From Leptotrichia wadei (lineage in GTDB: Bacteria; Fusobacteriota; Fusobacteriia; Fusobacteriales; Leptotrichiaceae): a stretch of DNA of 64,000 bases. The stretch spans positions 806,001-870,000 of the forward strand of contig NZ_AP019841.1 in NCBI RefSeq assembly GCF_007990445.1, in the 5' to 3' direction. Below, piece by piece: positions 40,718-45,360 of the stretch (its first letter is position 1; the number at the start of each line of letters is the position of its first letter). The notes beneath the pieces are model-generated. The model made no database searches and was not told the DNA's origin. It saw only the letters and a program-made list of their open reading frames with translations. The translations under genes were made by a program, and so were the position numbers.

Positions 40718-41062
40718 ATGCCAAGAGTAAAAACAGGAATAGTTAGAAGAAAAAGACATAAAAAAGTTTTAAAAGAAGCAAAAGGTTATAGAGGAGCTAT
40801 AAAAACAAATTATAAAAAAGCTAATGAAGCAGTTAAAAAAGCTATGGCTTATGCAACTGAACATAGAAAATTGAAAAAAAGAAAAATGCGTGAATTGTGG
40901 ATTATCAGAATTAACGCTGCTGCAAGATTAAACGGAATTTCTTATTCAAGATTAATGAACGGACTTAAAAAAGCTGGAATTGAACTTGATAGAAAAGTTT
41001 TAGCAGACTTAGCATTAAACAATCCTGCTGAATTTGCAAAATTAGTAGAAAAAGTTAAATAG
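40718..41062 (+). CDS. rplT: 50S ribosomal protein L20
   Basis: A 114-residue L20 with [32 protein letters not shown], and the C-terminal [20 protein letters not shown] and [10 protein letters not shown]. In other bacteria L20 binds its own operon mRNA to limit synthesis. Terminator at 41084-41139. Confidence 0.98.
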
Positions 41063-41221: not shown

Positions 41222-41442
41222 AATAAAAAAAAATCTAAATGAATTAGATTTAATTAAAAGGACTATACTTGTAAATCTTACTAAATAGATTAACTCTGAG
41301 TTATGAGATAGCCCTTTTTATATAGGGAAATTAAATAAATAATGTTTTTTTGGGCTATCTCATAAAATGGTCTTTTATTCAAAAAAACAAATTTCCCTAT
41401 ACAGCCATGAGATTGTTAAACATCGTTTAACTTTCCCTTGAC
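41222..41442 (-). ncRNA. Probable minus-strand non-coding RNA with interleaved stems
   Basis: The 760-base gap between rplT and hpt contains what looks like an RNA gene read on the minus strand. It has a strong promoter (41449-41476) and a terminator hairpin with a T run (41251-41222), giving a transcript of about 215 bases. In transcript order it holds the hairpin GTTAAAC/GTTTAAC (41431-41415); TATAGGGAAATT (41401-41390); TTATGAGATAGCCC (41365-41352); then AATTTCCCTATA (41332-41321), complementary to the second; and GGGCTATCTCATAA (41314-41301), complementary to the third. The two long pairings are perfect and interleaved, so they form a pseudoknot or compete. No protein frame fits. Not recognised as tmRNA, RNase P, 6S or SRP RNA. 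Confidence 0.6.
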
Positions 41443-41448
41443 ATTAGT

Positions 41449-41476
41449 ATTATAGCACAAAAATTAAAAAAGTCAA
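41449..41476 (-). promoter_or_regulatory. Promoter of the minus-strand RNA
   Basis: Read on the minus strand: TTGACT (41476-41471), a 16-base spacer and TATAAT (41454-41449). Confidence 0.7.
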
Positions 41477-41551
41477 TAGTACGAATTAAAAAATTTTAAA
41501 TTTTTAGGGTATTATTAAATTTGAGCAGTAATAATATTTATTTAACCATAA

Positions 41552-41595
41552 AGATAGCAAGAAGTCTTACGCTTCTAAAAGCGGGAGTAGTCCAC
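41552..41595 (+). repeat. IS605-type end hairpin, copy 3
   Basis: AGATAGCAAGAAGTCT is identical to copy 1, followed by a hairpin (ACGCTT with AAGCGG), GGGAG and GTAGTCCAC. The hairpin has changed on both sides (CTCCC to CTTAC; AAGTGGGAG to AAGCGGGAG). No transposase nearby. Confidence 0.5.
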
Positions 41596-41702
41596 TGTAT
41601 TGACTAAAGGTTATGGAATTTTATAAGTAATTATAAAATGTAAATTAGGCAATTGTAAAAATAAAAGTGGTAATATCAAACAGCAATAATATTTATTAAT
41701 CA

Positions 41703-41724
41703 CAAAGAACCAAGATTCTTTGTC
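41703..41724. repeat. Hairpin upstream of hpt
   Basis: ACAAAGAA pairs perfectly with TTCTTTGT around a six-base loop. No T run follows, so it is not a simple terminator; it may lie in the hpt leader. Confidence 0.4.
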
Positions 41725-41823
41725 AAGGAGCGAAGAGAGATAAGAAAATCAAGCATAAAACTGTGTTTGTTAGATTTTTAGATTTTTACAAATGAATGAA
41801 ATAAAAATAACAGGGAGGAAAAT

Positions 41824-42378
41824 ATGAACAGAGATTTTGAATTTGGAATAAAAAGACAGTTGATTACGAAGGAAGAACTTCAGAAAAAGGTAAAGGAACT
41901 GGGAGTAAAGATTACTGAAGATTTTAAAAATGAAAATGAGCCGTTAATAGTGATAGGGCTATTGAAGGGATCTATTGTGTTTATGGCTGATTTGATTAGG
42001 GAAATAAAATTGCCGCTTGAAATTGACTTTATTGAGGCTTCCAGTTATGGGGAAGGGACTCAAAGTTCTAGAGAAGTTAAGATTTTAAAGGATTTGAGAA
42101 GTACGATTAGCGGGAAAAATGTTCTGGTAGTTGAAGATATTATTGATTCAGGATTTACGTTAAAAAAAGTATTGCAAATTTTGGGAAGCAGAAACCCTAA
42201 GAAAATATCGCTTTGCACACTTTTAGATAAGCCTGAAAGAAGAGAAGTTGAAGTTGATGTGCAATATGTTGGATTTGAAATTCCAAATGAATTTGTTGTT
42301 GGATATGGGCTTGATTTTAATGAAAATTATAGAAATTTGGAATATATAGGAGTTGCTGAACCATCAGTATTTGAGTAA
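41824..42378 (+). CDS. hpt: Hypoxanthine phosphoribosyltransferase
   Basis: Purine salvage enzyme of 184 residues that joins hypoxanthine or guanine to PRPP. VIGLLKGSIVFMADLIREI is the N-terminal loop; the PRPP motif is VLVVEDIIDSGFTLKKVL; FVVGYGLDFNENYRNL is the C-terminal base-binding part. The site AGGGAGGAAAAT precedes ATG. rsmA follows after nine bases. Confidence 0.95.
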   Translation: MNRDFEFGIKRQLITKEELQKKVKELGVKITEDFKNENEPLIVIGLLKGSIVFMADLIREIKLPLEIDFIEASSYGEGTQSSREVKILKDLRSTISGKNVLVVEDIIDSGFTLKKVLQILGSRNPKKISLCTLLDKPERREVEVDVQYVGFEIPNEFVVGYGLDFNENYRNLEYIGVAEPSVFE

Positions 42379-44529: not shown

Positions 44530-45360
44530 ATGAGTGATGAAAATGAAAAAAAATGGTTTGATAAAAAAATATCACGTCGTGATTTTTTGAAAAAAGCAGG
44601 AATGGTTGGAGCAGGTGCTGCAATTGGAGCGAGCGGAGCGGGTGCAATTTTTGCAAATATGTTTAGCGGCAAGGCAAATCAAGTTGTTGGAAATGAAGAA
44701 ATTTCATTTTATGGAGAACATCAGTCAGGAATTGCTACTCCTGTTCAGAAAAATGTTTATTTTGCGGTATTAGATTTACATTCTACGGATAGGGAAGAAA
44801 TAAAGCAGATGTTCAAGGACTGGACAGATTATTCTGAAAAACTTATGAAGGGTGAACTTGTAGCACCAGAACTTGCAAATCATCTAGTTCCTCCGATAGA
44901 TACAGGAGAAACAGTGGGATTAAATCCGTACCGTTTGACAATAACTTTTGGAATAAGTCCGTCTTTTCTAGATAAATTGAAGCTGGATAATAAGAAAATG
45001 GAAGAATTTAAAGATTTGCCACATTTTCCGAGAGATCAGATAAAGGACAAGTATAAAGGTGGAGATATTTGCATTCAGGCTTGTGCGGATGATGCACATG
45101 TATTGCATACATCGTTACCGCTTGGTGTAATATTTGAATTGCCCGTTATTGTGGCATTTCTAACCTCGCTGCATATCTTGACGCCGCAATATTTAATAAA
45201 AAACAGGCGATATGGCTACTTTATTTTGCTCGTAGTTGCAGTCGTTCTGACACCAGCTGATTTTATAAGCGATTTAACAATGGCAGCACCATTAATCTTA
45301 CTTTATGAAGTGAGTATTTCTGTTTGTAAATATGTCTACAAAAAAAGGAGGGATGATTAA
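44530..45360 (+). CDS. Chimeric gene: EfeB (DyP peroxidase) N-terminus fused to TatC C-terminus
   Basis: A 276-residue hybrid. Residues 1-50 are a twin-arginine signal (ISRRDFLKKAGMVGAG). Residues about 60-188 are the N-terminal part of EfeB/DyP peroxidase: YGEHQSGIATP, VYFAVLDLHS, and GGDICIQACADDAHV, where EfeB normally continues for about 200 more residues with the haem histidine. From about residue 192 the sequence is the last third of TatC: SLPLGVIFELPVIVAFL, LTPQYLIKNRRYGYF, and LTPADFISDL. Both halves are incomplete: no haem site and no first four TatC helices. The junction is at about 45090-45115 and is in frame. An internal deletion joining two neighbouring genes explains it; an assembly error cannot be excluded. 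Neither function is expected to survive. Confidence 0.85.
   Translation: MSDENEKKWFDKKISRRDFLKKAGMVGAGAAIGASGAGAIFANMFSGKANQVVGNEEISFYGEHQSGIATPVQKNVYFAVLDLHSTDREEIKQMFKDWTDYSEKLMKGELVAPELANHLVPPIDTGETVGLNPYRLTITFGISPSFLDKLKLDNKKMEEFKDLPHFPRDQIKDKYKGGDICIQACADDAHVLHTSLPLGVIFELPVIVAFLTSLHILTPQYLIKNRRYGYFILLVVAVVLTPADFISDLTMAAPLILLYEVSISVCKYVYKKRRDD

What the first reader, a model, noticed from the sequence alone, without database searches (positions are those of the whole stretch)
41222..41476. Probable new minus-strand RNA with two perfect interleaved inverted repeats
A strong promoter and a terminator bound a 215-base transcript that holds 12- and 14-base perfect complements in a-b-a'-b' order. 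A third segment, ATCTCAT (41413-41407), can also pair with the 14-base arm (ATGAGAT). This is either a pseudoknot or a set of competing stems, i.e. a switch, but no gene follows.
Basis: seen in the sequence. Interest (0 to 1): 0.7.

Follow-up and report, generated by a model that had tools for sequence, protein, structure and literature searches.

The report
Conserved two-state small RNA in Leptotrichia
Between two ordinary genes, ten Leptotrichia species carry an unannotated small-RNA gene whose core has hardly changed and can fold in two equally good, mutually exclusive ways, so it looks like a free-standing RNA switch, but what it controls is not known.

Summary
The finding holds. The window is from a Leptotrichia chromosome. 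Between rplT and hpt, on the minus strand, lies a promoter-to-terminator unit of about 218 nt with the 12-nt (a/a') and 14-nt (b/b') perfect arms in a-b-a'-b' order; 0 of 400 shuffles gave any 14-nt arm. The locus is single-copy and syntenic in 10 of 13 Leptotrichia species, absent from a sister clade of three and from 85 other Fusobacteriota genomes. Its 75-nt core is 93-100% identical between species, while fourfold-degenerate sites of adjacent hpt average 63%. It is not 6S or SRP RNA (both elsewhere in the genome), matches no Rfam family and holds no conserved ORF. The 5' hairpin covaries. Both a:a' and b:b' are kept in all ten species, but b/b' never varies, so covariation cannot test it. 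Two nested folds (a:a' + b':d, or b:b' + a5':d) differ by at most 3.4 kcal/mol in nine of ten cores, each mostly about 4 SD better than shuffles; a pseudoknot is also possible. Best reading: a new lineage-specific small RNA with a bistable core, probably trans-acting. Transcription was not tested; no target was found.

The parts
41449..41476 (-). Promoter: -35 TTGACT (41476-41471), -10 TATAAT (41454-41449), extended -10 TG
   Evidence: 11 of 12; both hexamers invariant in ten species
41225..41442 (-). Predicted small RNA, about 218 nt (start inferred from promoter spacing, end from the U-run)
   Evidence: conservation; transcription not tested
41404..41442 (-). P1, 5' hairpin with compensatory changes
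   Evidence: Six of 15 pairs with changes on both sides
41390..41401 (-). Arm a (TATAGGGAAATT); its 5' flank GGCTGTAT (41406-41399) pairs with d in state B
41380..41389 (-). Arm c (TGTTTTTTTG), pairs with c' 41352-41343 and extends the a hairpin
41352..41365 (-). Arm b (TTATGAGATAGCCC), in the loop of the a:a' hairpin
   Evidence: invariant in ten species
41315..41351 (-). A/U-rich stretch, a 37-nt loop exposed when b pairs with b'; proposed seed
   Evidence: Near-invariant; seed role inferred
41321..41332 (-). Arm a' (AATTTCCCTATA)
   Evidence: paired with a in every sequence
41301..41314 (-). Arm b' (GGGCTATCTCATAA), pairs with b or, alternatively, with d (P3)
41261..41268 (-). Segment d (GTATAGTC), pairs with b' (P3) or with the 5' flank of a (P4)
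41225..41250 (-). Intrinsic terminator, A/T-rich stem and U-run
   Evidence: kept in seven of ten species

Best explanation
An independently transcribed small noncoding RNA gene found only in part of the genus Leptotrichia. Its core is a four-segment switch in which GGCTAT occurs twice (5' flank of a, and b') and ATAGCC/ATAGYC occurs twice (b and d). In state A, a pairs with a' (extended by c:c') and b' pairs with d; this masks the A/U-rich stretch and leaves b in a loop. In state B, b pairs with b' and the 5' flank of a pairs with d, which exposes a 37-nt A/U-rich loop. Most likely the RNA acts in trans by base pairing through that loop, whose complement resembles a ribosome-binding site with start codon, and the A/B balance sets whether the loop is available. 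Shown: the locus, its conservation and distribution, P1 covariation, and retention of both pairings in ten species. Computed only: the near-equal energies. Inferred: transcription, switching in the cell, trans-action and the seed.
For: Ten syntenic species and none elsewhere in 98 Fusobacteriota genomes; invariant promoter; core 93-100% identical against a mean of 63% at hpt fourfold sites and 70% in the adjoining part of the RNA; P1 covariation, 0 of 500 shuffles reach the covariation score; a:a' and b:b' perfect or G-U in all ten; states A and B within 3.4 kcal/mol in nine of ten cores, each mostly about 4 SD below shuffles; no gene follows on the minus strand; no conserved ORF; 6S and SRP RNAs lie elsewhere.
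Against: No transcript data. b/b' never varies, so the helix is untested by covariation. Terminator degraded in three species. Predicted pairing with 375 start regions is no stronger than for shuffled RNAs, and no conserved near-perfect target exists in the genus. In G001 state A is 6.4 kcal/mol worse than B.
Confidence: 0.45

Rival explanations
1. One static pseudoknotted RNA: a:a' and b:b' form together in a compact fold that binds a protein or small molecule (or titrates a protein), and the alternative states are only computed.
For: The a-b-a'-b' order; 39-44 kcal/mol of stacking before the pseudoknot penalty, comparable with either nested state after it; near-invariance of loops as well as stems; no mRNA target found.
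Against: Conserved segment d offers b' and the 5' flank of a an alternative partner in all or nearly all species, which a static pseudoknot does not need. The 10-bp c:c' pair, kept in nine of ten species, would have to open for it on geometric grounds (inference).
Confidence: 0.3
2. The RNA acts on its neighbours: it controls the convergent rplT operon (as antisense by read-through, or as an L20-binding RNA) or the divergent hpt promoter.
For: The position next to rplT and hpt is fixed in ten species; the terminator is degraded in three species, so read-through into rplT antisense is possible there. L20 is known from E. coli to bind structured RNA (own knowledge).
Against: The RNA is not complementary to either gene within its own bounds; seven species keep a terminator; three species do without the RNA while keeping rplT-hpt adjacency; stable synteny is common for small-RNA genes.
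Confidence: 0.12
3. Not an RNA: a conserved DNA element (protein-binding inverted repeats) or a mobile-element relic.
For: Perfect inverted repeats in A/T-rich DNA; transcription untested.
Against: Single copy and syntenic; invariant promoter; compensatory changes in a hairpin that starts at the predicted +1.
Confidence: 0.05

Closest known systems
6S RNA (Rfam RF00013)
   Same: Stand-alone bacterial RNA of about 200 nt with a strong fold
   Different: The genome has its own 6S at C1:2133854-2134056, over the Rfam cut-off; this RNA has no 6S match
Riboswitches and transcription attenuators (including the Leptotrichia manA-II and fhsA motifs, PMC11109978)
   Same: Ordered segments that pair in mutually exclusive ways; the fhsA motif may also form a pseudoknot
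   Different: Those act in cis on a gene of the same transcript; here no gene follows on the strand
Trans-acting fusobacterial small RNAs such as FoxI and FoxJ of F. nucleatum (PMC11005410)
   Same: Intergenic, own promoter and terminator, conserved sequence and synteny within a lineage
   Different: FoxI/FoxJ have a sigma-E type promoter and a C-rich seed; this RNA has a sigma-70 type promoter and an A/U-rich candidate seed; no target is known
Metastable RNAs such as hok mRNA (own knowledge)
   Same: Two exclusive folds built into one RNA
   Different: hok encodes a toxin peptide; no conserved ORF here

Membership tests
6S RNA (RF00013) | Match to the 6S covariance model at the locus | tested here: not met
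   No match even at E <= 10; the true 6S is elsewhere in the genome
Bacterial SRP RNA (RF00169) | Match to the covariance model at the locus | tested here: not met
   SRP RNA is at C1:658434-658531
Any Rfam 15 family | Score at or above the gathering cut-off | tested here: not met
   best is rhtB, 26.2 bits against 55, on the other strand
Trans-encoded small RNA (general class) | Own promoter and terminator, intergenic, noncoding, conserved in relatives | tested here: met
   terminator kept in seven of ten
Trans-encoded small RNA (general class) | Expressed as a discrete transcript | not testable with these tools
   No RNA-seq or Northern data available; none found in papers
Trans-encoded small RNA (general class) | Conserved complementary target | tested here: inconclusive
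   A partial search found no target better than chance
Riboswitch or attenuator | Regulated gene downstream on the same strand | tested here: not met
   rplT lies convergent, on the other strand, in ten species
Bistable RNA switch | Two mutually exclusive folds of similar energy, both conserved | tested here: inconclusive
   Both sets of pairs retained and near-equal model energies, but b/b' never varies and nothing was measured

The most novel reading that the evidence does not exclude
A free-standing RNA switch: a trans-acting small RNA whose seed is masked or exposed by a built-in, near-isoenergetic two-state core, set by a ligand, temperature or a partner RNA, with no gene on its own transcript.
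Probability: 0.2. Interest if true: 0.75.

Novelty: new member of a known kind. Interest (0 to 1): 0.5.

Why it matters
Little is published on small RNAs in Leptotrichia, an oral genus best known as a source of Cas13a. A 75-base core that is nearly frozen while neighbouring synonymous sites have drifted marks an RNA under strong selection. If both states are real, it would be an uncommon case of a switch-type RNA that is its own gene, and it is simple enough to test by probing and deletion.

Tried and rejected
Rfam at gathering threshold and relaxed: only chance-level hits. 6S and SRP identity: rejected. Phage or mobile origin: a pattern scan of viral contigs gave one record, and of genomes two Leptotrichia records plus twelve unrelated ones, which were not examined further. 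The b motif as a target signature: TGAGATAGCC occurs 32 extra times in the ten genomes against 13 for its reversed control, but the sites lie inside genes or in ordinary terminators, for example after a DegP/HtrA-like gene. A candidate target, the start region of a 260-aa gene of unknown family at C1:2007380-2008159, matches over 28 of 33 nt and ranks first of 376 for the a' segment, but only by -21.6 against -21.4 kcal/mol, and the gene is absent or divergent in several species that have the RNA, so it is not accepted. Small ORFs on either strand: no frame is kept in all species.

Full report
What is there. The window is a stretch of a Leptotrichia chromosome (2.4 Mb assembly; relatives carrying the same element include L. 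hongkongensis JMUB5056 and Leptotrichia sp. oral taxon 879). Between rplT (40718-41062, +, Pfam Ribosomal_L20) and hpt (41824-42378, +, Pfam Pribosyltran), the minus strand carries TTGACT-16-TATAAT with an extended -10, then about 218 nt, then an A/T-rich terminator hairpin with a U-run (41250-41225). In 400 dinucleotide shuffles of the RNA, five had any perfect arm of at least 12, none had 14 and none had the interleaved combination. The predicted RNA folds 5.25 SD below shuffles.

It is conserved. A search of 40 related genomes finds it in 10 of 13 Leptotrichia genomes and in no other genus at a meaningful score. A covariance model of the core run over 98 Fusobacteriota genomes gives the same ten and none of the 85 genomes outside the genus. 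In all ten it lies between rplT and hpt in the same orientation. The three genomes without it (G004, G006, G012) have a short rplT-hpt gap and form a sister clade to the ten in an rplT+hpt tree, so one gain or one loss explains the pattern. The promoter hexamers are invariant. Over columns 76-150 of the alignment the species are 93-100% identical (mean 98%), against 87% for hpt overall, 63% at hpt fourfold sites and 70% in the adjoining part of the same RNA. This is strong purifying selection on a noncoding segment; no ORF on either strand keeps its frame in all species.

Structure. P1, a hairpin beginning at the predicted transcription start, has compensatory changes in six pairs, which argues for an RNA on this strand rather than a DNA element. 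The a:a' helix is paired in every sequence and varies only by G-U. The b:b' helix is perfect in every sequence, but its 28 positions never change, so it is retained without being tested by covariation. The a hairpin is extended by a further perfect pair, c:c'. RNAalifold prefers a third helix, P3, in which b' pairs not with b but with a downstream segment d, GUAUAGYC. d can instead pair with the 5' flank of a (P4, 96% of cells paired, with one both-sided change, at a column that also keeps its P1 pair). The motifs are thus GGCTAT (a flank), ATAGCC (b), GGCTAT (b'), ATAGYC (d): a four-segment arrangement that allows a:a' + b':d (state A) or b:b' + a-flank:d (state B).

Energies. With each state forced on the core alone, A and B are -35.3 and -35.0 kcal/mol in the window sequence. 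They differ by at most 3.4 kcal/mol in nine of ten species, and by 6.4 in favour of B in G001. z-scores against shuffles are mostly near -4 (A from -2.0 to -5.0, B from -3.3 to -4.5). In the full-length RNA the nested ensemble favours A in seven species, B in two, and is about even in one. The pseudoknot a:a' + b:b' without c:c' totals -39 to -44 kcal/mol before a penalty of several kcal/mol, so it competes with both. These are model energies; nothing was measured.

How it probably works. No gene follows in the RNA's direction, so this is not a leader. The genome's 6S RNA and SRP RNA are elsewhere and no Rfam family matches. The simplest reading is a trans-acting small RNA. The A/U-rich stretch that state B exposes as a 37-nt loop and state A masks is nearly invariant, and its complement (AGGGAAAUUAAAUAAAUAAUG) resembles a ribosome-binding site with a start codon, so blocking of translation initiation is the mechanism I would test first (inference). 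I could not find a target. Duplex energies to 375 start regions from a 464-kb sample of the genome plus one candidate were no stronger than for shuffled RNAs, and near-perfect complements elsewhere in the genus are few and not conserved. A protein partner is therefore a serious rival.

The RNA, its strand, its bounds and the two interleaved helices are right. The ATCTCAT third strand is intact only in the window species and already altered in its two closest relatives; the genuine competitor is d. The terminator is weaker than implied and is degraded in three species.

Known or new. The nearest published work found is a 50-genome survey that included L. buccalis and reported the manA-II and fhsA leader motifs (PMC11109978). 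Its main text describes nothing like this, but the supplementary lists could not be read here, so an unnamed entry there is possible. The F. nucleatum small-RNA study examined (PMC11005410) mentions neither Leptotrichia nor rplT. I file the element as a new member of a known kind (small RNA), with the two-state core as the feature that could raise its importance.

Noticed in passing
44530-45360 (+): One ORF joins the N-terminal part of a Dyp-type peroxidase (with Tat signal) in frame to the C-terminal part of TatC. In nine other Leptotrichia genomes the two parts lie in separate, longer open frames (about 2.8 kb apart in G002), so a deletion in this genome, or an assembly join, probably fused them; tatA follows directly.
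   Followed up: partly
41480-41823 (+): The hpt leader is about 340 nt long and holds two imperfect copies of a GCAATAATATTTATT...CA(T/C)AAAGA segment; the close relative G002 lacks about 60 nt of the first copy. No Rfam match.
   Followed up: partly
L119, L120, L122, L128, L131, L135, L137, L143, L145 (near 1001): Leptotrichia genomes reuse a GGCT(T/A)TCTC...TGAGATAGCC hairpin with a U-run as the terminator after a DegP/HtrA-like gene; it shares the b motif with this RNA.
   Followed up: partly
L057 (G000:C1:2007380-2008159, -): A 260-aa protein with no Pfam match, patchily distributed in the genus, with a more divergent second copy in several genomes; one relative has it interrupted by stops.
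   Followed up: no
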